In this document: in pieces, positions 10,810 to 59,000 of the stretch
How the letters are laid out: the number at the start of each line of letters is the position of its first letter
How positions within the stretch are numbered: position 1 is the first letter of the stretch
Assembly: GCF_000004195.4 (NCBI RefSeq)
Contig: NC_030678.2
Location: forward strand, 29,860,201 to 29,924,200
Direction: 5' to 3'
Length of the DNA: 64,000 nucleotides
Source: Xenopus tropicalis
Taxonomy: Eukaryota > Chordata > Amphibia > Anura > Pipidae
Program-made: the position numbers and the translations under genes
The notes under the pieces: model-generated
Seen by the model: the letters and a program-made list of their open reading frames with translations, nothing else
What the model was told of the DNA's origin: nothing
The model's database searches: none

Positions 10810-11995
10810 TAGAAGCCTCAGGGTTCTGTAGGGTCCCTCAGGGTTCTGTACTGGGTCCACTTTTGTTTAATTTGTTCATAAATGACTTAGGGGAGGGTAT
10901 TATGAGTAATGTTTCAGTGTTTGCAGATGACACAAAACTCTGCAGACCAGTCAATTCTATCCAGGATGTGACATCCCTGCAGCAGGATCTTGACCAACTG
11001 GCAATCTGGGCAGCTAAGTGGCAGATGAGATTTAATGTGGATAAATGTAAGGTCATGCACCTGGGATGTAAAAATATGCAAGCCCCGTATACCCTTAATG
11101 GGACTGCACTAGGTAAATCCATAATGGAGAAGGACCTTGGAGTCCTTGTAGATAATAAACTTGGCTGTAGCAAGCAATGCCAGGCAGCAGCTGCAAGGGC
11201 AAACAAGGTTTTGAGCTGTATTAAAAGGGGTATAGATTCACGGGAGGAGGGGGTTATTCTTCCCCTTTACAGAGCGCTGGTAAGGCCCCATCTAGAATAT
11301 GCTGTTCAGTTTTGGTCTCCAGTGCTCAAACGGGACATTACTGAGTTAGAGAGGCTCCAGAGAAGGGCAACTAAGCTGGTAAAGGGTATGGAAAGTCTCA
11401 GTTATAAAGAAAGACTGGCCAAGTTGGGTCTGTTTACACTGGAGAAGAGGAGCTTAAGAGGTGACATGATAACTATGTATAAATATATAAAGGGATCATA
11501 TAATAACCTTTCTAATGTTTTATTTACCAGTAGGTCCTTCCAACGGACACGAGGGCACCCACTCCGTTTAGAAGAAGGGAGGTTCCATTTAAACATTCGG
11601 AAAGGATTTTTTACAGTGAGAGCTGTGAAGTTGTGGAATTCCCTCCCCGAATCAGTCGTGCTGGCTGATACATTATATAGCTTTAAGAAGGGGCTGGATG
11701 GATTCTTAGCAAGTGAGGGAATACAGGGTTATGGGAGATAGCTCTCAGTACAAGTGAGGGAATACAGGGTTATGGGAGATAGCTCTTAGTACAAGTTGAT
11801 CCAGGGACTGGTCCGATTGCCATCTTGGAGTCAGGAAGGAATTTTTTCCCCTCTGTGGCAAATTAGAGAGGCTTCAGATGGGGTTTTTTGCCTTCCTCTG
11901 GATCAACTAGTAGTTAGGCAGGTTAGGTATAGGCATTATGGTTGAACTTGATGGACGTATGTCTTTTTTCAACCCAACTTACTATGTTACTATAT
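10810..11995 (+). mobile_element. 5'-truncated CR1/Rex1-like non-LTR retrotransposon
   Basis: Starts abruptly within the reverse transcriptase domain and runs to a typical 3' tail (TTGAACTTGATGGACGTATG, then TCTTTTTTCAACCCAACTTA and CTATGTTACTAT). It is nested in the piggyBac-like element, which it must postdate. A 41-bp direct duplication lies at 11711-11792 across the stop codon. Confidence 0.88.
10833..11741 (+). pseudogene. reverse transcriptase, C-terminal part (CR1/Rex1-like)
   Basis: Open from VPQGSVLGPLLFNLFINDLG through the catalytic VFADDTK motif (F-A-D-D) at about 10918-10938 and on to the C-terminal RTRGHPLRLEEGRFHLNIRK, WNSLPESVV block and the stop. It lacks endonuclease and N-terminal RT motifs and so is dead as an element, but this part keeps an intact frame. 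That suggests a fairly young insertion. Confidence 0.9.
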
Positions 11996-18900: not shown

Positions 18901-21900
18901 GACTCCAACCCCAGTCACTAGTAAAGGGGCATCCTTTGTGTATTCCCTGCACTTTACAGTGATAAAAGTGTGACATTTTTCTGCTCATGCTTCATTAGAT
19001 AAAATCAGAACTGTTAAATGCAGTGTCCCTGGGAAGCCTTGGCAAGGGCTAAACCCTATGGTATTTTATGAAGCTGTGTTTCTAACTTTTCATACAACAA
19101 ATTTCAGTTGTACCTTTGCACAGAAAAAGCAAAGAAAACTGTTTTTAACAATATGGTGAAAGATAATTTTATAAAAATACTCAAACTGTTCATATGAACT
19201 GACAAATGCAACCAGGTTGTAGCTCAATCTGTCTTGTATTTTTCAGAACATTCAGGAAAGTTTTTAACTAATTGACACATTTATCAAAGCTGTTGTCATA
19301 TTCAGGAAAAAAACAATTAATATGATTAATTCCTGCATAACAAAAATGGCTAAATGTAACATCCCCTACCCCCAATAAGGTTTTACTGCTTTGTAACAAT
19401 CGCTGGGGAATGGTGAATTTGCTACAAAATTTGTTTTTTGGAGAATTTAACCATTTTATAAATCTGTGAAAATGGGAAAAACCTAATCACTGAGTGTGCC
19501 ATTTTGCTATACGCTCCCCAGTGAATAAAATCCAATATAAATTACCCCTCACTGATTCCATTTGAAGAACACTGAGGTTAATAATGACTTTCCTTCTCCT
19601 TTAAAAACAGCTTGCAGAGCAGTTACTGGTGTTTTATCTCTGCTTGTGTTTCACTGGCTTGAGAAATGTCTCTTGTGATGTTGCCCCTAAAACATTGTCG
19701 GCCAATGTTTGGCTGTAGATAAAGATGCTAATAAATAGCAGTGCAGCTGTTGGGACAGTGCAGAAGATTTTCTGGTCCCCAAATGTTAGGGGGTGTGGCT
19801 AAAGCAGGGGGTGGAGGGGTCCACAATCTGAACATCATAACAACTTGGGGTAAATGCTTTCAAAAGAATCTATATACCTGTGGTCTGTAGCAAAGTAGAC
19901 AAATAGCCAATAAAAGCTGCTTATTATAAGATATTGTACTGGTATGTTTGTATATGAGCCTTAGGCTCTTAAAGGGGCACATACACCTATATTGTTGAAC
20001 AGGATCAGAATAAACAGGACTTGTGCAGTGTGAATTTGCATCCTTTCAACACAAGGCAATATATTGTCCTTTTCACTGCCAGCCCTTTAGCAATGTGCAA
20101 TTCCCCTTGTTTGGAATTGAATGCAGACGTGTACTTAACACTTGAATGGCAGATTTCTGTTTTTATATTTTTTATTTAAAGGCGTATTGCATGAAAATCT
20201 GAATATTATACAAGGGGTTTGGTGGGGAAAATGTACAATATTTATTGTATTCCTTAACAATGTTTTCAGTTACAAGGCTGCTGCTCAGCACTGCCCCTCT
20301 GTACCATCAAGATGTATCTTTTTGTCAGTAACAGTAGAATAAATGTACATTAGGCTAGTGCTGGATTCTTGTCACCACTATACAGGACTATGGCACACGT
20401 TACCTTAAGGTGGCCACACACGTGCCGATCTGACTGCCACTAAACTTTAGGGCTGAAACAGGCAGATAAGGAGGTAGAAACAATAGGATTTCTACCTCCT
20501 TCTGCCGATTCAGCGCTGAAGGCAGCTTTTGGTCAGGCGCCTTCTATGGCGCCCGATCAAAATCTTTTAACTGGCCCGTATCAGCGAGTCGACCGATATC
20601 AGCAGCTTCCTGCGATATCGGTCGACTCGCCAACTTGCCATACACGCACCGAATATCGTACGAAACGAGGTTTCGTACAATATTATCGGTGCATGTATGG
20701 CCAAATTTAGATGTGAAACAGTGAATTTCAGGATTACTCTGGAACACTGAAATCGGAGGTGACAGGCTGGGTAGATCAGCACAGCACAATGTACCTAGCT
20801 TGCTTTAATTTGGCAGTGTTGTAGCCATTATTGAGGCCTAGTGTGTTTGCTGAGGAGCAGGGACTTTACATCTGACACTCACAACAATGCATTAGATGTT
20901 CTTAACCCTCACAAACAGATACTGTGCACCATGGAGGTTCTTACTATAGCCCTGTGTTTACACCATTTCTAGGAAGCTGTGCAGAGGTTGTTGGACGAAG
21001 CAGAAAACCAGGTAAGAATTGTTGCTGCCTATCTCTTTAGTACCACAAAAGCATGATGACTTGTGATACTAAAGACATTCAAAACACAAACAAAACCAGT
21101 GAACACTTGGAATGTGTGGAAATCCACTTAACTGCAAAGATAACACATAGATAAGTAATTAAATATTTAAATAGCTAATTACTAGGTGCATGCAGCAGAT
21201 GGCATTTATTTATGGGCACGTGGTATGCAGTTTTTAACTACTAATTTGTAATTATCTGTATAGCTAGGTGGGAACATGCTAGATATGTAATGTATATGTT
21301 ATACACTGCGGTTCTACATAGAATGGACCACATCAGCCACCAATATGTACATGTAAAACTTCCAACTGCATTTAATTTTGACTTTGTTTAGCTCTTGTAC
21401 TTTTACAGCCAACCACTTCTAAACTTTTGTTTTGTTTTATTTTTTAACAGCTTGAAAATGGAGATACCTGGCATAACCCAGAGGCCCCAGAAGGATACGG
21501 CACAGAAAAGGACCGAGCCAACTGCCCTTTCTATCTCAAAACTGGCGCTTGCAGATTTGGGGAAAGGTAATGGTAACTGAGCAAGCCATGTAGGCAGATA
21601 GGCGTAGTATTGCCAACAAGCTGCACTCATTTCCAATTTAAAATGATGGATTTCTGTAACATTTTAAGTTTAGTATTAGCACATTAAATAAACAAAGGAA
21701 CTCTGTGTTTCAGAACCAATTCCTTTAATATTTGTGCTTTTTATTACAAGCCCCGTGTGTGCCAGTATATTCCTAATTACCATTCTTATTATAGTTTTAA
21801 TATTTCTAAAATAGTGTGTGTACTAGAATATTAGCATTCTATGCTGTGTATCTCATTCTTGCTCTGTGCTGTGCCTGCCACACAGGTGTTCCCGTAAGCA

Positions 21901-24900
21901 CAACTACCCATCCTCCAGCCAAACGCTCCTTATCCGCAGCATGTTTGTTACATTCGGCATGGAACAGTGTAGGAGGGACGATTATGACACAGATGCCAGT
22001 CTGGAATATGGCGAAGAGGAGATTTACCAACAGTTCCTTGAGTTTTATGCTGATGTGGTCCCTGAATTTAAGAATGCGGGCAAAGTTGTCCAGTTTAAGG
22101 TAAACCTGAAGGATGGATTTTCCTTTCTTTCAGTTTATTTTGTCCAAGACGAAGTGTCTGCTTCCTAATATGCTAATTATATGTTCTGCAGATTTCACAA
22201 TTTTATTACTTTGCTGCTATTCATAAATTATTATACAGATTAATGCTCATAAAGAAGTATGGTACTCACAGAAACACTGCACTGAGTTCTCTATAAAAAG
22301 AAAATATGTTCTTAGGGTATCTGACTTCCTCTGTCAAAAAATCCCTCATTCCCAGGGCCGGAGTCTGCTCAGCTCTCTCCTCCCTCCCTTTTCCTGCTCC
22401 CCCCTCCCATAGGAATGTGTAATCTGAGCTACCAGCCTCTAGAGCTGCAAGCAGGAAGCTAGGAAGACCAAGCTAAAATGGCAGCTGCTATCTTAAACAA
22501 ACTGAGGAACCTTCTAGGGCTGTTTACTCAAATATGATCAAGCTTTCTGCAGAATAAATATAGTGTTCTAGGTGGCACTAATGTGGCAAATCTATTAGCT
22601 GTAAAATGCCAAAATGACTTTCCTTTTTCTTTAAAGACACAGTGCACACCTATAAACAGATTTGCTAAAAAAAAAAAAAAAAAATTCAATAGAACATGTG
22701 ATCAGGGCTCACTGATTGGATAAGACAGTGCTCAGATGGGGAGTGTATTGGGCAGTGTATTCCCAACAGTTGGGGAACTAGATTATTCAGATGATCATAT
22801 TCCTTTTTGGCTCTGAGCATAATGGGTGGGAGTCAGATCAGAAATTGAATTCATTCGATTTGAGAGGTCAAACTGCACTTTATAGACCTGTTTGTCTTAT
22901 TGTTCACTATTGATTTGCCCACTATGCACTTTTACATGAATCACTGAGCCATGTCCCATCACCATCTGCCAGACGTTGCTGAAGATCAGTTCTTTTTGGG
23001 TTACACAGTCAGTTCACATTAGTCTACAGTAGCTAGGCAACAGGCCTGCTTGCTCCTATGGGCTTCTTCTTGCATGCTGTAACCCGCCCAATGACGCTGT
23101 AGTGTAGCTGTGCCCCCTGTTAGCATTTTGTATGTGGGTAAAATACCTTATGGGAAATCTTCCTATCTTTGACATATTAAATGGGTCATTTTATGTGCAT
23201 TTGAATTCATCTCTAAAAACTGGTCTGGTTTTGTTCCACGTAGCAGCAGAGTTCAGACGTGAAACCATGAATAAAACCTGCTTTTCTTTTTCTTACAGGT
23301 TAGCTGCAATTTTGAGCCGCATTTAAGAGGAAACGTATACGTTCAATATCAAACGTAAGATTTTTATTTATACTTATATATAAGACTAAAGGCTATTTAT
23401 TGATTATTGGCCTAGATAAAGGGTGTGGGGAGGTGGAAACAAGAATGGGGTTAGTCTGCCCTATTATACACTTGCTACACTTACATGTACATATTTATGT
23501 GTATGTAGCCCTACTCCCCATCTAGAATTTTAGATAGTTATTACTGTATTTCCTTGTCTTCCCTTCTACTGTTTTATCTTCTCATTTTTCCCTTCTTACT
23601 CTTTCACCTTGTGCTATGGATTTTCACCTCCTCTCTCATGCCTGCGCTGTATCTTTTTGCAACTTATTTAATTGACCCCACAGTCCATGCAAATATCAAG
23701 TTAATCGTATTTTTTCTGTTGTATTCTGAAGGGAAGAAGAATGTTTGAAGGCCTTTACCCAGTTTAATGGAAGATGGTATGCCTCTCGGCAGCTTCAGTG
23801 TGAATTCTCTCCTGTAACCAGATGGAAAACTGCCATATGCGGTGAGCTGGTCAAATGATCGTTATCTCAAATGGTGCCAGGGCTTTATAACGTGCACATG
23901 TAGTCAGTCACCCACCCACCCACCCACCCGAACTGAAATCACCTTGCTAACCTGCAAAATGTGACAGAGCTCAAGGGACCTTAGTAAAGTTCTTTATAAC
24001 AGTACTGTGGAAATTAAAAGAAAAACACACACGCAGACAAAGAGTCTTTGATATAATATATGTGGTCTGTCTGTGCTCTGCTTGTCTTAGAGCAAGTAAA
24101 ACCCTTTATCAGCTTTCTTCACCTGCAGAGCACACCAGCAACCTATTTATGTTCCTGTGGCCATGCTAAACAGCATTGTATCAGTCTTCATGGTGCAGGT
24201 ATAAGATCAGTTTTCTAGAAACAAATAGAAAATGATTTTTTTTTTTGCAATAATAAATCTTTACCTTGTACTTGATAATGGCAAAACAATCCTATTGAGT
24301 TTATTTCATGTTTAAATGATTTTATAGTAGACTTATGGTATGGAGATCCCAAATTATGGAAAGATCCAGTATCAGAAAAACCCCTACAGCATTCTGAATA
24401 ACGGGTCCCATACCTCTATTTCTCTTTTCTTATAAAAATACTAGGCAAACATATGTTCAGTACAAGCCCTATTCATTGCACTTATGTTGAAAAAGGGGGT
24501 ATACTGCCTCTTAAGCAGTTCCTTATATGTGAAAAGTGAATATTATAATTATATGAAAATAGATTAAAGGGATATTGTCGTTATTTTTATGGTGTACGTT
24601 TTATTTCTAAATTACACTGTTTGCAAATAATTCACTCTGCCATTTAAAATTATATTCTTGAACTGACAAATTTTATTTCTTTAGTTGTAATATTGGTGTG
24701 TACATGATATGTAATATTGGTGTGTATACTCCAATGTAGTGCATTGTGTCCGAGTCTGAGCTTTCAGAAGGAGCCAGCGCTACATATTAGAGCTGCTTTT
24801 CAACCTATTGTTTCTCCTACTCCCATGTAACTGGAGGAGTCCCAAGCCGGACTTGGATTTCTTACTATTGAGTGCTATTCTGATACCTACCGGGAGCTGC

Positions 24901-25940
24901 TATCTTGCTCCCTTCCCATTGTTCTGCTGATCGGCTGCTGGGAGGGGGATATCACTCCAACTTGCAGCTCAGCAGTAAAGTGTGACTGAAGTTGATCAGA
25001 GAGCAGGTCACATTGATGTGGCACCGTGGGAAATAAAGAATATAGCTAGCCCCATGTGAAATTTTGTTTTTGAAAAAGGGATTTCAATGCAGGATTCTGC
25101 TGGAGAAGCTCTATTAACTGATGGGTTTTGTAACAAACATGTTTTCCCATGACCGTATCCCTTTAACTTTTCTTGAAACAACCACTTTTTAACAATGTGC
25201 CATATATTGATGTCTAAAAAAATATTAATCTAGAAATGTATAAATGTTTTTCAGGTTTATTTGAAAGGCAAAAATGTCCCAGAGGCAAGCACTGCAATTT
25301 CCTACATGTGTTTAAAAACCCAAACAATGAATTTTGGGAGGCCAATAGAGACATTCACTTATCCCCAGATAGGTCAGGGATATCAGAAAGAAAGGACCGA
25401 TCAAGCCGCCATGGAGATCACGGGCACCATCGCAGGTATCACAGCCCCAGCCCAGATTACTCGTATAATAGGAATGGAGATTCTAAGAGGAAGAAGAGCA
25501 GCCGCCACAGCAAAAACAAGAAGAAACACCGCTCACGCAGGTCGAGAAGCCAAGAAAGGAAAACGCGCAGCAGTGGCAAGAAAAAACACAAGCACAAAAG
25601 CAGAGGTTCCTCCAGGTCCAGAAGCCGAGGTAGGAAGCGGTCAAAAAGCAAGGAGAGAAGTAAGAGCAGCAGTTCTTCCAGGTCAAGAAGCCGTGGAGGA
25701 AGACGGTCAAAAAGTCGGGAAAGAAGCAAAAGCCGAGATCCTTCCAGGTCTAGAAGCCGTGGCAGGAAACAGTCCAGAAGCCAGGAGAGGAGCAAAAGTC
25801 AAGATCCGTCTAGGTCTAGAAGTCGTGGCAGGAAACGATCCAGAAGCCAGGGAAGGAGCAAAAGCCGAGATCCTTCCAGTTCCAGAAGCCGTGGAAAACG
25901 GAGGTCAAAAAGCCACGAAAGCCCAAAAATACACAAATAG
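12960..25940 (+). CDS. zrsr2: zrsr2: U2AF35-related splicing factor, 11 coding exons
   Basis: Nuclear splicing factor (Urp/U2AF1-RS2 family). In the known family it contacts the 3' splice site of U12-type introns, and it also acts in U2-type splicing with U2AF65 and SR proteins. Coding exons are 12960-12991, 14665-14741, 15638-15704, 16113-16218, 18420-18506, 20973-21011, 21451-21566, 21886-22099, 23299-23354, 23732-23841 and 25255-25940. They total 1590 nt, so 529 residues plus stop; human ZRSR2 is about 480. Domain order is: Lys/Arg- and Glu-rich N-terminus (about 1-136), CCCH finger with C161, C170, C176 and H180, UHM/RRM about 190-293, second CCCH finger with C301, C309, C315 and H319, then an RS tail from about 345. 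All introns are GT-AG and the phases match throughout. The start is the first in-frame ATG after an in-frame TGA at 12903. The gene converges on ap1s2. Exon chain and identity are read directly; function comes from the family. Confidence 0.97.
13175..13300. repeat. short MITE relic in zrsr2 intron 1
   Basis: Has GCAGTAACCCATG on the left and GGTTGCTATGGGTTACTGCC on the right as inverted arms. Same family as the fuller copy at 48420-48592. Confidence 0.6.
13331..13746. mobile_element. Harbinger-like MITE in zrsr2 intron 1
   Basis: TTAAGGCTGATGCCACATGT, GGCGTTTTTCC at the left mirrors GGAAAAACGCCACGTGTGGC, ACCAGCCTAAA at the right. The interior repeats GCGTATTTCCGC-like stretches. The end sequence GGCTGATGCC is shared with 43604-43819. 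Assignment to Harbinger is inferred from the TWA-like edge. Confidence 0.75.
14213..14365 (+). repeat. T2-like repeat, copy 2, zrsr2 intron 1
   Basis: Begins TTAAAGGGGAACTCTGGCTC and then runs like 7840-7995. It ends ~300 bp before exon 2. Confidence 0.8.
14665..14741 (+). CDS. zrsr2: zrsr2 coding exon 2
   Basis: Follows a TTTTAG acceptor and ends at GTACGT. It encodes the Lys/Arg-rich stretch ([20 protein letters not shown]) that corresponds to the basic N-terminus of human ZRSR2. Confidence 0.95.
15638..15704 (+). CDS. zrsr2: zrsr2 coding exon 3
   Basis: A 67-nt exon after a TTTCAG acceptor, encoding an acidic stretch ([18 protein letters not shown]). Its donor reads AAAG|GTCCAC. This is weak, with no purine at +3 and no G at +5, but it is the only position that keeps the frame. 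Reading on gives a stop within 18 nt. Confidence 0.9.
16113..16218 (+). CDS. zrsr2: zrsr2 coding exon 4
   Basis: Encodes [20 protein letters not shown] and then a Glu/Lys-rich helix, nearly the same as the human block [12 protein letters not shown]. Acceptor is GCATGCAG, donor is GTAAGC, and it ends in phase 0. Confidence 0.97.
16338..16793 (+). mobile_element. T2-like MITE, zrsr2 intron 4
   Basis: From TTTAAAGGGGATGTCCACCT to AACCACCCCTTTAA, both TTAA-ended, ~455 bp. The interior ATTAACTTAGTATGATGTAG and GGGTCAATGACCCCCATGTG recur in reverse in 52670-52963 and 59061-59384. Confidence 0.85.
16810..17183 (+). mobile_element. second T2-like MITE, zrsr2 intron 4
   Basis: Begins TTTTAAGGCTATAGACCAGG and ends GGTGAACCTCCCCTTTAA. 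Inner parts AGACCAGGATCAGTGCTG and CACTGATCCTGGTCTGTAGA form an inverted pair, so it folds back. Confidence 0.7.
17313..17592. mobile_element. GGTGGCCATACACG-family MITE, zrsr2 intron 4
   Basis: From TTAAGGTCCCCATACACGGG to CATGTATGGCCACCTTTA. The interior has GCCGATATCGGTCCCTTGGA, closest to the copy at the right edge (63654-64000). Confidence 0.85.
18420..18506 (+). CDS. zrsr2: zrsr2 coding exon 5
   Basis: 29 codons of charged, probably helical or coiled-coil sequence ([20 protein letters not shown]). It is phase 0 at both ends, so it could be skipped without a frameshift. Acceptor is TTTTTCCAG, donor is GTGACT. Confidence 0.93.
18507..20404. other. zrsr2 intron 5, left part
   Basis: AT-rich intron without a recognised repeat end. 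Purely intronic as far as can be seen. Confidence 0.5.
20405..20709. mobile_element. GGTGGCCATACACG-family MITE, zrsr2 intron 5
   Basis: TTAAGGTGGCCACACACGTG at the left, GTGCATGTATGGCCAAATTT at the right. An inner palindrome CGAGTCGACCGATATC ... GATATCGGTCGACTCG and a second, ACGAAACGAGGTTTCGT, are present. Nearly the reverse of 40024-40372. Confidence 0.9.
20973..21011 (+). CDS. zrsr2: zrsr2 coding exon 6 (39 nt)
   Basis: A small exon encoding [13 protein letters not shown], which matches the human EALQKMLDQAENE block. Acceptor is TTTCTAG, donor is GTAAGA. It is phase 0 at both ends. Confidence 0.95.
21451..21566 (+). CDS. zrsr2: zrsr2 coding exon 7, first zinc finger
   Basis: Encodes [13 protein letters not shown] and then [19 protein letters not shown], the first part of the C-x8-C-x5-C-x3-H finger. 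The finger is completed across the splice in exon 8. Acceptor is TTTTAACAG, donor is GTAATG. Confidence 0.97.
21886..22099 (+). CDS. zrsr2: zrsr2 coding exon 8, zinc finger end and UHM
   Basis: Encodes [20 protein letters not shown] and [20 protein letters not shown], then the acidic helix of the U2AF-homology motif. This is the most conserved part of the family. Acceptor is CACACAG, donor is GTAAAC. Confidence 0.97.
22255..22636 (+). mobile_element. T2-like MITE, zrsr2 intron 8
   Basis: Ends GACTTTCCTTTTTCTTTAAA. The interior is the reverse of 7556-7850. A poly(A) run follows at 22668-22685. Confidence 0.7.
23299..23354 (+). CDS. zrsr2: zrsr2 coding exon 9, UHM core
   Basis: Encodes [19 protein letters not shown], the RNP1-like strand of the UHM. 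The human sequence is nearly the same. Acceptor is TTCTTACAG, donor is GTAAGA. Confidence 0.97.
23732..23841 (+). CDS. zrsr2: zrsr2 coding exon 10, end of UHM
   Basis: Encodes [20 protein letters not shown], then [16 protein letters not shown]. The last cysteine is the first ligand of the second zinc finger. The acceptor is TTCTGAAG (AAG, less common). Donor is GTGAGC. Confidence 0.96.
23909..23930 (+). repeat. (CCCA)n microsatellite
   Basis: Five CCCA-type units in zrsr2 intron 10. Confidence 0.85.
24250..24415 (-). repeat. 'ggtatgrgacc' repeat fragment, zrsr2 intron 10
   Basis: Reverse-oriented: TACCTTGTACTTGATAA, AAACAATCCTATTGAGTTTA and finally ATAACGGGTCCCATACCT, the terminus of the family. 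Confidence 0.8.
24564..25166 (-). mobile_element. T2-like MITE ending 88 bp before zrsr2 exon 11
   Basis: Complete, ~600 bp, with TTAA at both ends: TTAAAGGGATATTGTCG at the left, GACCGTATCCCTTTAA at the right. Opposite orientation to 2078-2502. It has a 23-25 bp direct duplication near 24690-24730 (GTAATATTGGTGTGTA). Confidence 0.88.
25255..25940 (+). CDS. zrsr2: zrsr2 coding exon 11, second zinc finger and RS domain
   Basis: Begins [20 protein letters not shown], completing the C-x7-C-x5-C-x3-H finger, and then [20 protein letters not shown]. After that comes a His-rich linker and an RS tail. The tail includes five near-tandem 22-residue units starting at 25605, 25671, 25737, 25803 and 25869 (core [18 protein letters not shown]). 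The RS tail is about 45 residues longer than I recall for the human protein. Stop is TAG at 25938. Confidence 0.97.
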
Positions 25941-27642: not shown

Positions 27643-27849
27643 CGGCGTTTCAGGCTCAATATCCAGCCTTTGCTGCGGCGTTCCAGGCTCAATATCCAGC
27701 CTTTGCTGCGGCGTTCCAGGCTCAATATCCAGCCTTTGCTGCGGCGTTCCAGGCTCAATATCCAGCCTTTGCTGCGGCGTTCCAGGCTCAATATCCAGCC
27801 TTTGCTGCGGCGTTCCAGGCTCAATATCCAGCCTTTGCTGCGGCGTTCC
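27643..27849 (+). repeat. 33-bp minisatellite, six near-perfect copies
   Basis: The unit contains GGCTCAATATCCAGCC, CTTTGCTGCGG and CGTTCCA. It repeats every 33 bp with almost no change, the first copy having TTTCA for TTCCA. Since 33 is divisible by three and the unit has no stop in several frames, long artificial open frames appear on both strands. Low divergence points to recent expansion or homogenisation. Confidence 0.93.
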
Positions 27850-33783: not shown

Positions 33784-36700
33784 CTGCAGGGGGAAGGAAC
33801 ATAGTCAGTTTGGGCAATGAAGGAACGGAACATGTACCTATGGCACTCAGGAATACAACAATACACATGCTGGATTTATTTCTAGGGTTCTGTTCCTTTA
33901 AATAGGTGTTAATTTATGTGGGTACAGCTTCAAGAAAAAGGCGGCTAGTGACATCAGGGAGTGGGACTATGATGCGGCAGCCTGTGATTGGCTTACTGCA
34001 GCATCAATCAATGCAAAGTCCTGACTAAAGAAGTTATCTGGACCTACAGCAAAATCATGTAAGGGCCCTCTGAGCTTTGGGAAAATTCCCAGATTTTATT
34101 ATGTATATATATATATATATATATGTTTTTTTTGTTTTTTTTTTAATCTACTTATCAAGCAGTGGCCCACTGGTCCCCAGGCAACTGTGGTTCCTCTACA
34201 CTTACAGCTCTGCTTTTCTGTGACTCCTTAACAGAATAATATTCAACCTGTGCTCTAACAGTGCAATAAGGGAATATCATGTGAAAACATTTGCTTAGTA
34301 CTGGTCACCAAAGACCCTCTTGGTTGATCTAATGTGACTTTTCTGGACCTCGCTTGCATATAATAATAAGGGCTATATAAAGATACACACGTGTTAATGA
34401 GTCCTATGGCACAGAGGTTAGTGCTGCTCTGCATGTTCCCCCCATGCTTGGGTGGGTTTCCTCCAGGCAGGTTCATTGGCTCCTGATTAAATTGACCCTA
34501 TTGTGTGTGACTGTGATAGGTTCCTTAGACTGTAAGCTCCACTGGGGCAGGGACTGATGTATAATCACCGTCAATCACTCTGGAATATGCCGGCACAATA
34601 TAACATAATAGACAATAATAATAACTGCCATCACCAAGTGCCACTTAGGTTATAGTTTCCAGATCAGTCATGGCTCTAGTGCATTATAACAATAGAATTG
34701 TGCAGAATATAATCCCAATAATAATTTGCATTCAGTGCTAAAAGACACATTCTATCCAGCGATGCTCTCGCCGTTACAGTGCCTTCTGCGCAACATTTTG
34801 CCACTTCCGTGTGATGATGATAGAATTCCCCGACATCACCGGGCAGATAACAATATCTTCAGTCTGTTTATGAATGCGCCTTTGAATGTTAATAATGCAA
34901 AACAAAAGCTTTACTCTCAGCTTTCTGTGCCAGTTCCTCCCACAGTCGCTACATGGCGGGGAAACTAGAAACGTCTTTCTCCCTTTGCAGCAAGTGACAG
35001 CCTTCCCGAGCCCATCAAACCCTCCCAGAGCCCCCCTGATGGATACAAATCTCTGCCAGTGTTCAGGGGCATCTTTATTTTATTAACAGCAGAAAGGAAA
35101 CATCAAACAGACCTGAGAATAAAATGCTTCCAAAGGAAACCTGAGTCATATTGTTTCAATCAGAATCACTGGTATCTGCAGTAATGATAATTCTCACTAA
35201 CTGTCAGTTATCTGTAATCAGTGGGAATGAACAGCATCAGATGTCAGATTAACCAGTTAAACTGGCTGCCAAAAAGCACAATATTTGCCTTTGGTTCAAA
35301 CACAATCTACAGAGCTGGCGTTTAGTTACTGAATGTCAGTTCCATAGGTTTCATTATGTATCAGCTAAGCTGGCAGCAACATCAAAATGTGCATATCACA
35401 TATTTCTTGGCAGCAACAGCCCTATATTATGTAGGAAAGCCTTTCACACTATATGGAGAGCCATAAATGACATTTATTTATTTTACTCTGCACTATGTTA
35501 AAACTATTGTATTGTACATAAATAAACTTTACAGTAAGTAAGCCCTACTCGAACTCGCAATTTGTGGATTGTACCAACTGCCAGAGGGGCTGCTGTAAGA
35601 TGCCATAGACACTCACTATTTATTGGGCTGGTGGAGGGAAATTTGGGTCTTTGTGTAGTTAAAATGCCAGGGCCTGTTTAGAATCCCAGTCCAGGCCTGA
35701 TAGGAGCATGTGAAGCAATGCACACATTACATTATATTTAAATGTATACAAAGCAATTTCCGTTAGTTCCTTTGAGCAGATCCTTATCAGAGGGCTTCTG
35801 AGTAGACAGATAATTCATTTTATCAGCTTCTCCTCTGCTCGGCAGAACCAGGAAGTAACAGGAATCGGTCTAATTTTATTGTTGAGTGCCAGAAAAACAA
35901 AAACCATACATCTTTTTGGATTAAAATGGGTAAAAAATTATCTTCAGCAAAGGGACAGGAAGGGACGCAAGACTTTTTATACTGTGCCCACTTTTTGGCC
36001 ACTCCCCTATTGCCGTACCTCCACTCAACATCACAGCCACATCTCAATATATTTCCATAGAAAAGCGCCAACATAATTATCTACATATTCCTTCCCCAAC
36101 AGAAAAGCTGACGTGGGAAGTCTGGAGGATGAAGGAGGAAAGAAGGGACCAGGTGATCACTCCTTCCCCTGTCCTGGATTAGCAATGATTGGCTGGGGCA
36201 GATCTTTTGCCACAGGAGCAGCTTTTAGAGGCAAGAACTCTTGCCGGGGTCCATTTTCCAAAAGGGGACTGATGGTAACCTTACTACACGTGTGTGTATT
36301 TAATGTGTGTATTTAATGATGCCTACAAATGCCAAATCCCATCAGAAGGGCAAATAATGCAGCATAGCAGGATTTTCAAACCAGTCTGAGGGGCCAGGCT
36401 AGGCCGACTGTTTTATTGGCTTCTGCATGCCCCCCTTTACTGAGCTGTTGCTGTATATTACTGTAATTTGCCCCAGTGGCTATACATTGTAAATAATACA
36501 GTGAAACCTCAATTTTATGTTTTCCCACATTTTACAACTTTTTTGCATTACAAAATAATGCATTTCCCCGATTTTATATTTTATTCTCGTCTCCTGAAAA
36601 ACAAAATATGGTGGTTCTACTGTATTTCATCTCTAATAAGATAAACACCACAAATCCCTTTAAAACACACACACTTACTTTAGCATCCTTAGAGGGGACA

Positions 36701-39700
36701 GACATAGGAGAAGAGAAAGAGAAAAAGAACATGTTAAAACAGCAATTCTGAAGGAAAAAGCACATTCGTACATGAAACAATTGCCTTTTACTCTGAGAAA
36801 CCAATGTTATGGGAAGAACAAACACTTTTGCTGAGTTGCCATATTGTGTGCGGCCAGGCTGCTGGGATTCTCCTTCATTTATACAGCGCTGACTTATTTG
36901 TGCCCTGTTTGTACCAGCGGAGGAACTCTATGGAACAGCCTATAGGAACCTTCTATAAGAAAAGATATTAGCAAAATAAAAAGGCGCTGAAGTCCGTTTT
37001 GGGTTCTCTTGATTCTTTTGTATTTAAGTACATCATTATGCATTGTTTGTAAGTATAATTAGTAAAAGAAAGGTAAGTGCTAATGAATGAGCTCCTGCAT
37101 GTAGTTTAGGTGTGTGTGAGAGTTGGAGCAGATGGCTGAGCACATTAGAGAGGTATGCTGAGCCTCGCTATACACCATCGCTCTATTTTATATGTCACGT
37201 GGCAGCAAGTCACATTAAAAAGCTAAATTTAGCAGCAGGCACTCAAGCACAAAAAGCTTTCTGAGCCCCACGCAGAGACAAATCTTTGATCCTTAGAAGA
37301 ATGTTTATCCGACCATCCAGCGCAACAATAAAAGCTTTTCATTAGTCCCTTTCCCAGCACAACAGGTGAGGGAAACCGTTTGCTTTCTGGCGCAGGCTGG
37401 AGGAATAATGCTGAAGTTTCATGGCCAGAAAAAAAGGCAAATAAACATTGTGAGATTGACCATAACTGGACGGACTGTCCTTCGGAGAATGGCCGCACCC
37501 TACAGGAACTCATGGACTTCTACTAACATCTAATGCAAATCCCAAATGGGTTATCCCCCACAATACAATTCAGCCAATACAGTCACACAGCACACAGTCA
37601 CACAGCAACATTGGCCAGATTGGGCACTTACACCAGCTACTGTACCTATCTATACACTTGTATAAAAAAGACGGCATACTGTAGCTTGGCCAAAGTCTGC
37701 AGTGTGAGCAGGTCCAAAGCCTGGGTTTGCATAGCAGAATGTCAGCAATGGAGAAGCAGTCATGGCTTATGGCAGGGATCCCCAACCTTTCTTACTCGTG
37801 AGCCACAGTCAAATGTAAAAAGACTTGGAGAGCAACACAAGCACCATAAAAGTTCATGGAGGAGCCAAATAAGGGCTGTGATTGGCTATTAGGGAGCCTC
37901 TATGCACACTATCTGCTTACATGGGCTTTATTTGGTAGTAAATCTTGTTTTAATTAAACAAAACTTGCCCCCAAGTCAGGAATTCAAAAATAACTTTTGG
38001 GGGCACCGAGAGCAACATCCAAGGGGTTGGTGAGCAACATGTTGCCCCAGAGCCACTGGTTGGGGATCATCGGTTTATGGCCACACTTACACAAATGACT
38101 TTTAGCTCTGCCAGTTACTCTGCAACACATATCCCATGCACAGGACATATGTGCAAAGAACTGCCCTCTAACTGCAACTTTACATAGGAGTTTTCAGGGC
38201 CAGAGGTAGGCAGAAGCTGGAAGGGGTGCCAGGCACGGTTCTGATCGGCCTGGCTGCCCCTATTTGGTAGCTCCTGGAGAGGATTTTTGCACCATTAGCT
38301 TGCCCGTGCCATCTTCAGGTAATACAAGCACATTGATGATCTTGGCCTTACCCAACTGCCAATTATCTAATCCAAGTAAGTCACAATAATCCACTTTATG
38401 CACCATTTTATTATTTACAAGACTTAAGGTGGCCATACACGTAACAATAACAAGCTTTTGTGCGACCAGTGGTCCTACAAAGGATCGTTCCCACCCTCCA
38501 CTGACGTTCAGGGCTGAATGGTCATATATGGAGGTAGAAACAATAGAAATTCTACCTCCACCTGCCAATTCAGCCCTACATGCCCTACAGCCGCCATACA
38601 TGGACCGAATATCGTACAAACAAGGTTTCATATGATAATATCGGTGCCTGTATGGCCAGCTTTACCCACTGTTTAATCTTTATAACAAATAGTAGGTCAA
38701 AACAAACTGCTCCCATTATTTGGCCCTCAGGCCCACAAGACCCAGAGGGTCAAAGAAACAAAGTTTTCTACGATAATATCGGTGCGTTTATGGCCAGCTT
38801 TACCACTGTTTAATCCGATATCAAAACAGATAGTAGGTCAAAACAAATTGCTCCCATCATTTGGCCCTCAAGCCCACCAGACCCAGAGGCCCAAAGAAAC
38901 AAAGAGAGGATTGGAGGGCCCCACTTGCTCTCCAATCCTCAATATGAGGTGCATGCTTGCAAATGTGACAGCTACTAAATAGAAATGCAAAAGTTAATCC
39001 TAAACTGCAAAAGACGCCTTACGGTCTGTATTTCTCGCTGCGGTTCCATTAGGCAGCCTTTGTAGAGTCAGCAAGAAGCACTACTAGTGCATGTAATGGC
39101 TTAAAGCACATTTCATAATGGGTAAACAAAGTAGCTGTAATTTCTCAATGGACGACTGCAGAGAGCAGTGCATTCTGGTGATAAATGCTCTTAAACTCCA
39201 TCGCTTTTATGGGAATGAGCTGTCAAACGGAGGAAGTGGATGATTACAATCCATTCTCACTCAATTTTAAAACAATATGCAGGAAGTTTCAAGCTCATCA
39301 TGATTTTACAGATGGCTGGGGCCAGGCAGGCCAGTTTCTCTGGGCATTTAATCCAATGGCAAAGTACAAAATAAGATAAATAACAACTTGCTTGGCATGG
39401 CAATAGTTTGTGAACCGATACACAAAACTGCAATGTTCTGCTCCTCCTTTAGTCTTCTGTGCATTCCCAGAGGCTGCAAAGCTGCCCAGCTATAATTTAT
39501 TTGTTCCAAGGAAAATAAATGGGCTTTCATAGTGCCGCAAGGGTACAGTTCACTTTATAGAGAAACAAATCACCCATACATTAAATGCCATTAACTATAA
39601 TAAATGCTGAAAACATACACAGGCCTGGAAAGAGTTTTCTGTCCCCAAACACTTACTAGCTATAAAATTATAATGCTCCCCTATTCGCTTTCAGTGAGCT

Positions 39701-53000: not shown

Positions 53001-56000
53001 GCAGGTTAGAGGTATAAATGCACGAGTGCCAACACTTGTTCCTAACAGAATGTGAGTGTGCCACACTGTCTGGCTGTGAAGAAGGTTCCTTACTGGACAA
53101 TGTGTTTAACACAGAGGCTCCACTGCTGAAGCAAATAAAGACAAACAGCAAGTGAAAAAGATATGAAATGTTCCAATCTATGGGTGGACAGGCCCTTAAA
53201 GGAAGACAATACCCCACTCACCAAATACTTGCATGCCCTGAAGGATTATAATAATACATGGCCTTTCTATAGTTACTTGTTTCCAGCAAGGGTTGCTTAC
53301 TAACACATGCAGCAGTCTTTGCAAAACACCCAGCTGTATCCGTGCCACCAGAACAGTAAATGTAGTTACCAACACTTTAGGAGGTAGGTCGGGGAGGCTA
53401 ATCCTTCAGATTAGTCCTTCTCACAAGATATCATCTGAATAACCTCCCCAGTCTTCAGTCTGGGTCTACAAACATAAAACCAAGCGGCATGTTTACGAAA
53501 TGTATTGTTGGAGAATGACCTTTTCCTTTCATTATAGGCTAAATCTCATATATACAGCATAACACAAGGAAACAATGGTGATTATGATTTATCTCACTGC
53601 CCACATATGCCCACCCACACAATTTCAGTTACAACTCCTGAGGATGCTCTTCTGAGTGCTTCTTTAATAACATTTTCTTTTTTCATGACATTAGCAGTTT
53701 TTAATGAATGTGTAACAGGCTTTTTCTTTTCTGTCTGGGCAGCAGCCTTACAGAACTCCACAAGCTTGTTACTGATTCAGAAGGCATCCCCTGATGCTTT
53801 GATGCTCACTTTTATTGCTCCTGCCAAACTAAAAGATAGAACTGAGCAAACATGTGCCAGGAGATGCTTCCTGCATCAGTAACTTAACTCTCAAGTCTCA
53901 AGGTATCAGGTCTTAGCAGCCAGGGTTACAATGTGACTCCAGCAGCCGCTGTGCTTACTTGATTAACTTTGCATCCCCAAGTGAGTGAGCTGTGCTGCTA
54001 TTGTGTGGGCATTGCTTACTATTATTTGTGCTCCTCCCATTCTTAAATCAACTGTCACAACAAATCCCAATAGATATTGACTGCAGGCATCATGCTAGAA
54101 CCCCATTCATCATTACTCTACAAATATAGCCACAAGCTAAACTCTGGGACTGCTTGAAGTAAAACAAGCAATTTTTGCCAAAACCATGTGTTTCCCAACT
54201 TAAAAAAATCTGGTCTGATTCCAATAAGAGGAGGCTTAAAAACGACAGGTTAATCCTGACCCTAAACAATCTACCCAACTGGTTTAAAGTTAATTTATAT
54301 TCTCATTATAAAAGTGAATACAGAGCTGTCAAGTTAAGATACCTTTATGTGTTATTGGGATGTGATGGGAACAATGCAATCACCAGTATAACAGAACTGG
54401 AAGGCAGCTATGGAATGGATTTTTTTAGATTACAGTTCCCACAAAAGAATTGGTCTGCTCGAAATCTAGTAAGAAATTGCTTTAGAAGTCAGTATATCAC
54501 TAGGCAAGTTCTTACTAGATTTTGAGCAGACCCATTCTTTTGTGGGAACTGTAATCTAAAACATGTCACAGGGTAGGCATTATGTAGGCCCTTTATGGTA
54601 AGTATGAAGTACAGTTGATGCATATTGAATATAGGATGCTAGACGGATTCAATTTCACATGAAAAGCAAAATATTCTTGGATGTGCAGTTACTGTGACAC
54701 CTATTGTTGAAAATGCGCTGTGTCCGAAAGAGAAACTACATTGCATTACTTGGCAGATGTAAAGTCTATATACATTTTATAGTAGACCCAATAATTCAAT
54801 ATTGTCAATGCAAAAAAAAGAAGGGTGTAGGTCAGGGGATCCCACTAGTATGGAGAGCTCTACATGGTAAGAAGGATTTTTATAAAGGGCCTTGTGAGGC
54901 TCAGAATATCACCCTCTATATATCACTGTGAGGCAATAATAAATCACATTCTGAACCAGCGGTGAAGTGGTAGGGTGAGCACGAGTAACACTTAAAGGCA
55001 AATTTCAGCATTTCGCCACCTGCCTGCCAAGCTTGAATTCACCTAAAAATACACTGGGGATTGGTATTAAAGAACTTGCAGTTCAGCGACAACATCTGGC
55101 TGGCTGTCAGAGGGATGGGTGAAATACAAACACAAATAATAAAGGTTTACTCTGGCACAGTAAATAGAAAGCCTTTACCATTAATGATACAATGTGAAGC
55201 ATTTAGCAGTAATATCCTTTCTGTTCCTAAAGCAATTATACATCCTACCAAGCTACCATCCTGCCAAGGTTTCCTTCTAGAAACACTTAAAAAGGCAGTG
55301 TGCATTCTGCACAAAATGTCCCCTATTAATATCTTTATGGCAGTTTGCAATGCAGTTTACAAAATACAGGTAAAGGCTCTATTATCCACAATGCTTGGAT
55401 CCTGGGGTTTTCTGGATAAGAAATCATTCTGTAATGTGGCTCTCCATGCCTGCTAATAAAAACATGAAATAAATCCAATAGGATTGTTTTGCCACCAATA
55501 TGGATTAATGCAGCTTAGGTACCATCAAGTACAAGCTACTGTTTTATTATTACAGGGAAAAAGGAAATCATTTTTAAAAATGAATTACTTGCATAAAATG
55601 GCTTTCCTGTAATTCTGAGTTTTCTGGATAACAGGCTTACGTGTGTGGGATCCCATTCCTTCCATAAATGCACACATTGCGGAACTGCAGTTGTTATCTT
55701 TGCCTTTCCTTTTATCTCAATAGCTCTCCTAAGGGCTGTGACACACAAGGAAAATTAGTCAAACCGCGACAAATCTCCATTGTTGCGGGCGACTAATCTC
55801 CCTGCAATGCCATCCCTCCGGCTAGAATGTAAATTGCCAGTGGGATGGCATACGCGGTGCCGCAATTTGTCGAAGTTGCCTTGAGACTTGAGAAAAATCG
55901 CAACGCCGCGTATGCCATCCCACTGGCGATTTACATTCTAGCTGGTGGGATGGCACTGTGGGAAGATTAGTCGCCCGTGAAAACAGAGATTTGTTGCTGC

Positions 56001-59000
56001 GTGACCAATCTGCTCATGTGTCACAGCCCTAAGACCTGATTTTCTGGGTATTACCATTTTTATTTCAAAATGGAGGATTTTAGGAACTGGAAGGTGGCTT
56101 CTGCCCCCCATTCCCCTATAAAAGTGGGAACCAACCCAAGTGAGTCGGGCCAGGTTGTACCAATGGAAATTAGCATCATCCCCAGAGAACCAGACCCTGG
56201 TGGTGAGACAAGTGTGTGTTTTTATTTTGGTATCAATTTCCCTTTAAATTTGTCAGGTTAATAATTAATAATACAATAACCATAATATTATTTGAAACTG
56301 CACTGATAAGCAAGACCTGTTTTGCACATCGTCTTCCAGTTACTGGCCTTATAGTTAAAAAAAACATGTGGGAGCCTTCTTTCCTCAAAAATATAGTGTT
56401 TGGAATTAACACGCATTTATTTTTCATATCAAACATTCAGAACAGTTTGGTACATTTGGCTGCCAGCCTGCAACTGTAATCAGTAGTTAAATGCAAATTT
56501 CAGTAAAAAAAAAAAATAGACACATCAGCGGCATTAATTGAGAGACCTTGGCACAAAGGAATGTTTTCTGTCTCAAGCCCAGCTATACATTCTCGCAGCA
56601 TATAAATATTTATATCCATGCAGAAAATCTCTAAAAAGACAGTTGGCCTTTGGGCAGTCTGCTTGCAATTTATTTGAATAGACAGCTTATGGAAATAGGG
56701 GCAGAATCCCCAAGCTGTCCAGTGACCCATAATTCCCATTTGCACAATAGCACAGTACAGGCAAGCTGCTACAATGTCTACTTGTCATCTCTATGCAAAA
56801 TAATCTACCAATTAAGAACATCAGCAGCAATAACATATAGTAGGTCTCATTTACTTATACCCTGGGTGCAAGAACTATTGTGCCCCCCTAGTGCTCATTC
56901 ACTCAGCACATATGTCAAGGGGAATAGCTGTGTTCTACACCTCACACAAGCAGTGTGGCGATATAACAATATATTTTACTTAGCAGTGACCGGAATGGCA
57001 TCACTCAAGCGCACACTAGTCCTACAGAATGATAGCAAGCTGCAACTGCTGCTCCTTTCAACACAATAACCATTTTTGATGTTCCTAGACAGAGAGGCAG
57101 TTTGTGTTTCATTGGAGGTTTAAGTAAAGACGTCTATTCATTTTTAGAAATGTTAGAACTACTTCTAAGTGTATTAGCAGCAGAAAAAAAGGTCTCAGAA
57201 AAGTTAATGTTAATAAACTATACCTGAATTAGGCTCAAAGGAGAGAGTCTACCTTCTGGAATTCAGCAATAAAACAGCAAAGAAGCACACACATATCAGT
57301 AGACAGACACAGAATGTTAAAACATGGACAAAGGGAATGCTATGATTGTACCAAGGGAACAACAGGCTATATTATTTGCACCTATCACACCATAGGCACA
57401 TTGATCCAAAAACCCACATTAGAGGAGAAAAAGGACAAAAGGGTAGGAGTAGATAGGGATAGAGAGAAACGCCATGCAGCACGTGCGTAGTGCTAGGGGG
57501 CAAAAGCACAGCACAGAGCAGGACGCAGGAAGGATCAGTATTCAGGGCACGTCATGCTGTTCCTCTGCCCTGTTCTCGGTTTGCCTTACCTCCTGCAGAA
57601 GATCAGCCTGTTCTATGGCTTTCAGCACGTTTTTCTTGGATGTCTCCTGGACTTCGCCTCCCAACAAAAATTCATCCAGAATAAAATAGGCTTTTTCAAA
57701 ATTAAAGATGATATCGAGTTCGCACACCTGAAAGGCAGGATTCGTAGAAAGTGCGTTTTAATTAGACGGAGCTTTTAAGACAAGAGTGCATAATAATGCA
57801 TGGCTATGCGCAGGGAACATTTTCATTAGCACAATTAGAGTAGAAAAGAACCCTCTGCATTTGTATCTGCTAAAAATTCAAAAACATTTAACCAGGGAAA
57901 AGCTTTTTTTTCAGCTCATAAGCAGACGTAGGCTTGTTGAACATTTCCAGTTGGGAGAGAATATCCCACGTCAACCTAAGCTCTGTTTATTATGTTTTGT
58001 AAAGTTTTCAATAAACATACAAACCCTATAGAAGCCGAAATATATCTATTTTGATCTTTACAATGTCAGTAGACTACAGACACCTATATATCTATAAAAT
58101 AATAATCAGATAAATATCTTCTAGTTAGATTTATTATATTGGATTGAATAAATTATAATGCCTAAAATATTTTAATGTTTGAGAATTTTCTTTAAAAGGA
58201 AAGGCAACAGGTCTACAGAAGGAACTTCTGGTTCTCAAGCAGAGATCCTGCTCATGGTGGTCATTGAGAGATTCAGAGCAGAAACTTGTGTCTACTGAGA
58301 GGTTGAGTAATTTATATTACATCTTTTTTGGAAGTTTGAATCAGATCCAGATTCAATCAGTTGCTTAAAGTATGGACAGGCAAACGGTTGCCAAGATTAC
58401 CAAAAAGCAGAAAATTGTATTAGTCTGTAAGTCTAGGAAAAATTGTTGTGACAGCCAACATTCTAAATGAGTTTATTGATGGGGCATTCCCCCTATGGAA
58501 ACCTCGAGTAGCGGCAGGGGGCAGTTAGGGTGAGATCATGTGGTGACTGCCTATTTTAAATGCACCAAAAAGCCCAGCATGGAAGTCAGTTAGGGTAAGA
58601 TTTGGGATGAAAAGCCCTAGATACTATTTTAACTACTGTATTGACTGGTAAAATGATGTTTTTCTCAATGTGTTACCTTCTAATGAGCTTAGGGAGGATT
58701 GCCCCAAAGGTTTGTCTGGGGGTCCCCAACCTTTCTTACTCATGAGCCACAGCCAAATGTAAAAAGACTTGGAGAGTATCACAAGCACCATAAATGTTCA
58801 TGGAGGAGCCAAATAAAGGCTAAGATTGCCTATTAGGCAGCCTCTATGCACACTATCAGCTAATAGGAGGATTTATTTGGTAGTAAATCTTGTTTTTATT
58901 CAACCTAAACTTGCCACCAAGTCAGGAATTCAAATATAACTACCTGGTTTGGGGGCACTGAGAGCAACATCCAAGGGGTTGGTGAGCAACATGTTGCCCC

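What the first reader, a model, noticed from the sequence alone, without database searches (positions are those of the whole stretch)
36679..36687. A 9-nt in-frame microexon in ap1s2 with a PTB-type tract
Between the exons ending LLQE and starting EAETP lies GATGCTAAA, with a perfect GTAAGT donor and a CTCTAAG acceptor. Just upstream is a long pyrimidine run with CTCTTTCTCT-type motifs, the kind of tract bound by PTB proteins that repress exons outside neurons. A GTGTGTGTG stretch follows the donor. Both flanking exons are phase 0, so inclusion adds Asp-Ala-Lys to the sigma-1B C-terminal tail without other change. Splice sites are seen in the sequence; neural regulation is inferred. I recall a mammalian DAK isoform but cannot verify it here.
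Basis: partly seen in the sequence, partly recalled or inferred. Interest (0 to 1): 0.75.

Follow-up and report, generated by a model that had tools for sequence, protein, structure and literature searches.

The report
Frog copy of known AP1S2 microexon
A nine-base exon in a frog gene for a vesicle-coat protein is really there and looks like the frog version of a brain-specific mini-exon already well studied in humans, so it is sound but largely expected.

Summary
On the minus strand of ap1s2, GATGCTAAA (36687-36679) sits between a tctaag acceptor and a GTAAGT donor, between phase-0 exons ending LLQE (57590) and starting EAETP (33783); inclusion adds Asp-Ala-Lys. Splice-site strength alone is weak evidence: 9-nt pairs this good arise at about 0.1 per simulated intron. 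But its 24-nt pyrimidine run is the longest on that strand in 64 kb, and no other AG lies in the 58 nt before the acceptor's AG. A 2026 paper (passages) describes a conserved, SRRM4-dependent 9-nt human AP1S2 microexon, so this is best read as its frog orthologue: already known. The mammalian residues were not confirmed (0 of 240 listed homologues carry the insertion; that collection merges near-identical isoforms). 'PTB repressor' is half the story: UCUCU/UGC is also the published SRSF11/SRRM4 enhancer, and the genome holds two SRRM_C domains. Expression in frog is untested.

The parts
36679..36687 (-). 9-nt cassette microexon GATGCTAAA (Asp-Ala-Lys)
36688..36693 (-). acceptor tctaag
   Evidence: acceptor matrix score 6.7 against 12.9 for the last exon (approximate matrix from memory)
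36673..36678 (-). donor GTAAGT, followed by GTGTGTG
   Evidence: donor score 9.4
36706..36729 (-). 24-nt pure pyrimidine run TTCTTTTTCTCTTTCTCTTCTCCT with two TCTCT words; candidate PTBP and SRSF11/SRRM4 site
   Evidence: longest such run on this strand of the window
36733..36737 (-). TTAAC, only branch-point-like YTNAY within 60 nt upstream (branch A at -47)
   Evidence: motif match only
36742..36744 (-). nearest upstream TGC (-57), on the far side of the branch-point-like site
57590..57727 (-). ap1s2 exon VCELD...LLQE
   Evidence: PF01217
59580..59688 (-). ap1s2 exon (R)YASLY...FGS; boundaries read by eye from TTTAG|GTACGC and GGCAGC|GTGAGT
   Evidence: PF01217
33736..33783 (-). last coding exon [15 protein letters not shown] (coding part)
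53421..53465 (-). alternative terminal exon [14 protein letters not shown] (phase 0, acceptor tttgtag; coding part)
   Evidence: compare tails of P0032 and P0051
49266..49301 (-). alternative terminal exon [11 protein letters not shown] (phase 0, acceptor cttttgtag; coding part)
   Evidence: identical to tails of P0044 and P0067

Best explanation
This is the frog orthologue of the known 9-nt, SRRM4-dependent neural microexon of AP1S2. Outside neurons the weaker, G-interrupted acceptor and PTBP bound to the CU tract would keep it skipped. In neurons, falling PTBP1 and the eMIC domain of SRRM3/4, with SRSF11 at the UCUCU/UGC elements, would help the spliceosome define the exon, so that Asp-Ala-Lys is inserted where the last helix of sigma-1B meets its flexible C-terminal tail, tuning contacts within AP-1. 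Shown here: the exon, sites, frame, tract, and SRRM_C domains in the genome. Inferred: splicing, neural regulation, the factors, orthology to the mammalian exon, and the protein effect. The confidence given is for the identity as the AP1S2 microexon; for the regulatory mechanism as written it is nearer 0.75.
For: Exact anatomy. Longest pyrimidine run of the strand, long AG exclusion zone and a single branch-point-like site within 60 nt, matching the reported layout of eMIC-dependent exons: long AG exclusion zones, longer tracts with UCUC words (PMC8797185, passages; described there for Drosophila). [quoted passage not shown] Two PF15230 (SRRM_C) loci over the curated cut-off in this genome. 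AlphaFold2 of a fish relative without DAK places residues 127-144 in a helix and gives 144-157 a pLDDT below 50, so the insertion point (after residue 142) is near the helix-tail junction (weak model, mean pLDDT 62.3).
Against: None of the 240 homologues listed in two searches (120 of 4522 and 120 of 130) carries a DAK insertion after LQE, though the collection is clustered at 90% identity, which merges such isoforms. No TGC lies between the branch-point-like site and the acceptor; the nearest is at -57, not the canonical near-acceptor place. No RBFOX GCATG within 150 nt upstream or about 200 nt downstream. Splice-site scores alone are within reach of chance. The passages read do not give the position or residues of the mammalian exon. 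The main texts of two zebrafish microexon studies do not contain 'ap1s' (supplements not seen). No RNA data.
Confidence: 0.87

Rival explanations
1. A chance pair of splice-like sites in a long intron; GATGCTAAA is never an exon.
For: Equally good 9-nt pairs arise in 18 of 200 simulated introns and frame-keeping 3-27-nt pairs at 0.655 per intron; two other candidates in the real intron score higher. No DAK isoform among 240 listed homologues.
Against: Coincidence with the longest pyrimidine run of the strand, a long AG exclusion zone and a lone branch-point-like site; same gene and length as a published microexon.
Confidence: 0.06
2. A real microexon (not exclusive with the orthology in the best explanation), but included constitutively or in a way not governed by SRRM3/4 and PTBP, for example by NOVA2.
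For: Strong donor; no TGC near the acceptor; AP1S2 is named as a direct NOVA2 splicing target, event not specified (PMC9543825, one passage).
Against: The human AP1S2 exon is SRRM4-dependent and was not part of fibroblast transcripts without SRRM4 activation (PMC13387927, passages); in zebrafish 44 of 95 conserved microexons also lack the full UGC-plus-UC layout, typically having one of the two (PMC12626420, passage); only three YCAY (NOVA-type, recalled) words within about 200 nt downstream, at +65, +68 and +175.
Confidence: 0.15
3. The CU tract is mainly an enhancer (SRSF11/SRRM4 site) and not a PTB silencer (a rival on one step only).
For: The UCUCU word nearest the Ptprd meB microexon supports its selection in a reporter (PMC13080001, passages).
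Against: Ptbp1 knock-down raised inclusion of 129 of 141 responsive micro-exons (PMC4317164, passages); the two roles can share one tract.
Confidence: 0.3

Closest known systems
Human/mouse AP1S2 9-nt neural microexon (SRRM4/nSR100 target)
   Same: Gene and, for human, exon length (PMC13387927, passages); an Ap1s2 microexon, length not stated, is also reported in linear and circular RNA (PMC8355340, one passage)
Vertebrate SRRM3/4 (eMIC)-dependent microexon programme
   Same: UCUCU-rich tract, long AG exclusion zone, weaker acceptor, strong donor, tiny frame-keeping exon
   Different: No TGC close to the acceptor; nearest at -57
Alternative C-terminal exons of AP1S2 ([19 protein letters not shown] type)
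   Same: Frog versions found in the same intron at phase 0; such tails seen in fish and mammal records
   Different: Terminal exons that replace the tail, not a cassette insertion

Membership tests
Orthologue of the mammalian AP1S2 9-nt microexon | Lies in ap1s2 | tested here: met
   Last exon [15 protein letters not shown] is that of records named sigma-2; the two other genomic matches to the preceding exon are 87% (C3, last exon EDESPRSVLEEMGLA, sigma-1A type) and 76% (C5) alike
Orthologue of the mammalian AP1S2 9-nt microexon | 9 nt, frame-keeping | tested here: met
   human length from PMC13387927
Orthologue of the mammalian AP1S2 9-nt microexon | Same intron and same residues as in mammals | tested here: inconclusive
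   0 of 240 listed homologues show the insertion; collection merges isoforms
Orthologue of the mammalian AP1S2 9-nt microexon | Conserved in other frogs and tetrapods | not testable with these tools
   this genome has no relatives in the genome tool
SRRM3/4-dependent neural microexon | UC-rich tract with UCUCU upstream | tested here: met
   TCTCT at -35 and -29
SRRM3/4-dependent neural microexon | UGC close to the acceptor | tested here: not met
   TGC at -57 and -75 only, within 150 nt
SRRM3/4-dependent neural microexon | Long AG exclusion zone | tested here: met
   upstream AG at -62, next at -2
SRRM3/4-dependent neural microexon | eMIC-bearing regulator in the genome | tested here: met
   two PF15230 loci above cut-off; that SRRM_C corresponds to the eMIC is recalled
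SRRM3/4-dependent neural microexon | Inclusion in neurons, lost without SRRM3/4 | not testable with these tools
   needs RNA
PTBP-repressed exon | CU-rich binding tract | tested here: met
   24-nt run
PTBP-repressed exon | PTBP binding and derepression on knock-down | not testable with these tools
   needs CLIP and RNA

The most novel reading that the evidence does not exclude
One 23.8-kb ap1s2 intron works as a tail selector: from the same phase-0 donor, frog cells choose among the plain tail, the DAK-extended tail, [25 protein letters not shown] or read-through, with the DAK tract a shared switch for PTBP repression and SRSF11/SRRM4 activation, giving neuron-specific AP-1 complexes that differ only in sigma-1B's last few residues. 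The tail [11 protein letters not shown], with its YxxPhi-like YFNV, might compete with tyrosine-type cargo signals.
Probability: 0.25. Interest if true: 0.45.

Novelty: already known. Interest (0 to 1): 0.22.

Why it matters
It extends a clinically relevant human microexon (an SRRM4 target whose inclusion was altered in cells of a patient with an SRRM4 movement disorder; PMC13387927, passages) to a frog, where splice-blocking and deletion tests are practical. It also points to tail choice in sigma-1B as a wider and older feature than one microexon, since two further tails have counterparts in fish and mammal records.

Tried and rejected
Search for DAK-bearing homologues: two protein searches, 240 listed rows (120 of 4522 and 120 of 130), 0 with an insertion after LQE. 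P0026 contains the letters DAK elsewhere, between the FGS and VCELD exons, and was rejected.

Paralogues: the 906-nt intron of the C3 gene (sigma-1A type) has three AG-9-GT strings and no DAK-coding one; no AG-flanked, GT-followed DAK string in the fetched stretch (about 30 kb) downstream of the C5 exon (taken as ap1s3 by exclusion), whose own last exon I did not locate. So no paralogous microexon was found in what was fetched.

A fish tail type (NIDFQMRLF..., 6 of 120 rows) and one seal-record tail (P0048) have no convincing match in the frog gene.

Solved-structure search: 15 sequences matched, among them AP-1 sigma-1A and sigma-3 but no AP-1 sigma-2. The structure model is weak; no fold search was run.

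One score (acceptor of the VCELD exon, -8.1) is wrong because the script's coordinates were one base off; it is not used.

Papers that gave nothing on this exon: the term 'ap1s' does not occur in the main text of PMC12626424, PMC12626420, PMC4317164 and PMC10551640; in PMC7821500 only the whole word AP1 was sought, with no hit.

Whether the flanks are part of a transposon was not settled: that genome search did not complete.

Full report
WHAT IS THERE. The window lies in a 1.45-Gb assembly (G000:C2:29860201-29924200); its size fits Xenopus tropicalis (recalled, not shown). ap1s2 runs on the minus strand: an exon coding (R)YASLY...FGS (59688-59580), an exon coding VCELD...LLQE (57727-57590) and a last exon coding [15 protein letters not shown] (from 33783). 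The first two match PF01217. An upstream exon coding MQFMLLFSRQ...VYK lies outside the window (L010). In the 23,806-nt last intron, GATGCTAAA at 36687-36679 is flanked by tctaag and GTAAGT. Joining the exons keeps the frame and adds Asp-Ala-Lys. All coordinates in the finding are right.

IS IT MORE THAN CHANCE? By splice-site score alone, not clearly. With approximate matrices (from memory) the pair scores 16.1 (acceptor 6.7, donor 9.4). Of six 9-nt candidates in the real intron one other scores slightly higher; of 113 candidates of 3-27 nt two others do; in 268,000 nt (strands summed) three other 9-nt candidates do. Two hundred simulated introns gave 0.095 such 9-nt pairs each (18 of 200 with any) and 0.655 frame-keeping 3-27-nt pairs. 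The tract is the better evidence. A 24-nt pure pyrimidine run at -42 to -19 is the longest on that strand of the whole 64 kb (the longest on the other strand is 23). There is no AG between the one at -62 and the acceptor's own, and within 60 nt one branch-point-like TTAAC with its A at -47. Among AG-9nt-GTRAGT strings, only this one has a pyrimidine run of 20 or more within 60 nt: 1 of 2 in the window and 0 of 5 in nine other fetched loci. These tests were chosen after seeing the element, so the figures are descriptive.

WHAT IT IS. PMC13387927 (passages) describes a conserved, widely studied, SRRM4-dependent 9-nt microexon of human AP1S2, not part of fibroblast transcripts without SRRM4 activation, and refers to earlier work linking it to autism brains and to AP-1 interactions. 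PMC8355340 (one passage) reports an Ap1s2 microexon in linear and circular RNA. [quoted passage not shown] Same gene, same length and a largely matching regulatory layout make the frog element most likely the orthologue. I could not see the mammalian residues or position: 0 of 240 listed homologues bear an insertion after LQE, which says little because isoforms differing by three residues merge at 90% clustering. The two primary papers cited there were not held. Two zebrafish microexon studies do not contain 'ap1s' in their main text (supplements not seen), so conservation in fish is neither shown nor excluded.

HOW IT PROBABLY WORKS. The CU tract is open to two readings that can both hold. 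Ptbp1 knock-down in N2A cells raised inclusion of 129 of 141 responsive mouse micro-exons (PMC4317164, passages). UCUCU/UGC elements recruit Srsf11 and Srrm4 and enhance microexons (PMC13080001, passages), and a review states that SRRM4, bound at UGC, can counteract PTBP1 repression in vitro (PMC10551640, passages). Here TCTCT lies at -35 and -29 but the nearest TGC is at -57, upstream of the branch-point-like site, so one canonical SRRM4 feature is not met. That is not fatal: of 95 microexons conserved between mouse and zebrafish, 42 had the full UGC-plus-UC layout and 44 a similar one, typically with one of the two (PMC12626420, passage). The genome carries two PF15230 domains, as expected for srrm3 and srrm4 (which is which not tested). 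No GCATG was found within 150 nt upstream or about 200 nt downstream. In the protein, the insertion follows residue 142, near the end of a predicted helix (127-144) and before a tail with pLDDT below 50 (weak model of a fish relative without DAK). An effect on partner contacts is inferred from the cited paper, not shown.

The same intron holds two more phase-0 endings: [14 protein letters not shown] (53465-53421) and [11 protein letters not shown] (49301-49266), each after a TTTGTAG acceptor. The second is identical to tails in a pupfish (P0044) and a salmon (P0067) record; baboon (P0027) and naked mole-rat (P0113) records share its first ten residues, [10 protein letters not shown], and a hagfish record (P0075) has PQHVYYSTAAF. 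The first resembles lemming P0032 and fish P0051. In the 120 rows my script sorted 77 as classic tails, 19 as beginning with V after LQE (possible read-through into the intron), 6 as NIDFQ type, 5 as PRHEY type, 2 as SQTEDW type and 11 as other, of which some are divergent classic tails. Different AP1S2 endings are already catalogued in human data: PMC9485890 (passages) lists two AP1S2 'AT' events (88571 and 88569, the latter at exon 5.2; AT read as alternate terminator by recall), and PMC3715437 (passages) lists a strongly tissue-specific AP1S2 exon at residues 140-153, the end expected of the [11 protein letters not shown] isoform (142 + 11), so that exon may be the one meant. I cannot say whether these tails have been studied as a set: one search listed 20 papers (of these, passages of PMC7397853, PMC8650491, PMC9543825 and PMC3715437 were seen) and another listed 20 of 186, none of the 20 holding AP1S2; the library holds open papers only.

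VERDICT. Real, correctly described, very probably the frog copy of a known microexon; interest is low for the microexon itself and modest for the tail-selector arrangement.

Noticed in passing
window 53465-53421 (-): Alternative terminal exon [14 protein letters not shown] of ap1s2, similar to lemming and fish isoform tails.
   Followed up: partly
window 49301-49266 (-): Alternative terminal exon [11 protein letters not shown], identical to pupfish and salmon isoform tails; contains a YxxPhi-like YFNV (motif recalled).
   Followed up: partly
window 57589-57542 (-): Read-through of the LLQE exon codes [15 protein letters not shown]. 19 of 120 listed homologues continue with V after LQE: either a composite terminal exon in some species or gene callers running into the intron.
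   Followed up: partly
window 27643-27849: Near-perfect minisatellite, 33-bp unit, 6.3 copies, 99% match; being a multiple of three it gives repetitive open frames on both strands.
   Followed up: no
window 21866-25940 (+): Open frames that look like zrsr2, including an Arg-Ser-rich end (by recall; two of them gave no Pfam or solved-structure match); AP1S2-ZRSR2 neighbourhood as recalled for the human X chromosome.
   Followed up: partly
window 10863-11741 (+): 292-aa open frame with a reverse transcriptase match just under the Pfam cut-off (29.1 against 29.6 bits): a LINE-like remnant.
   Followed up: no
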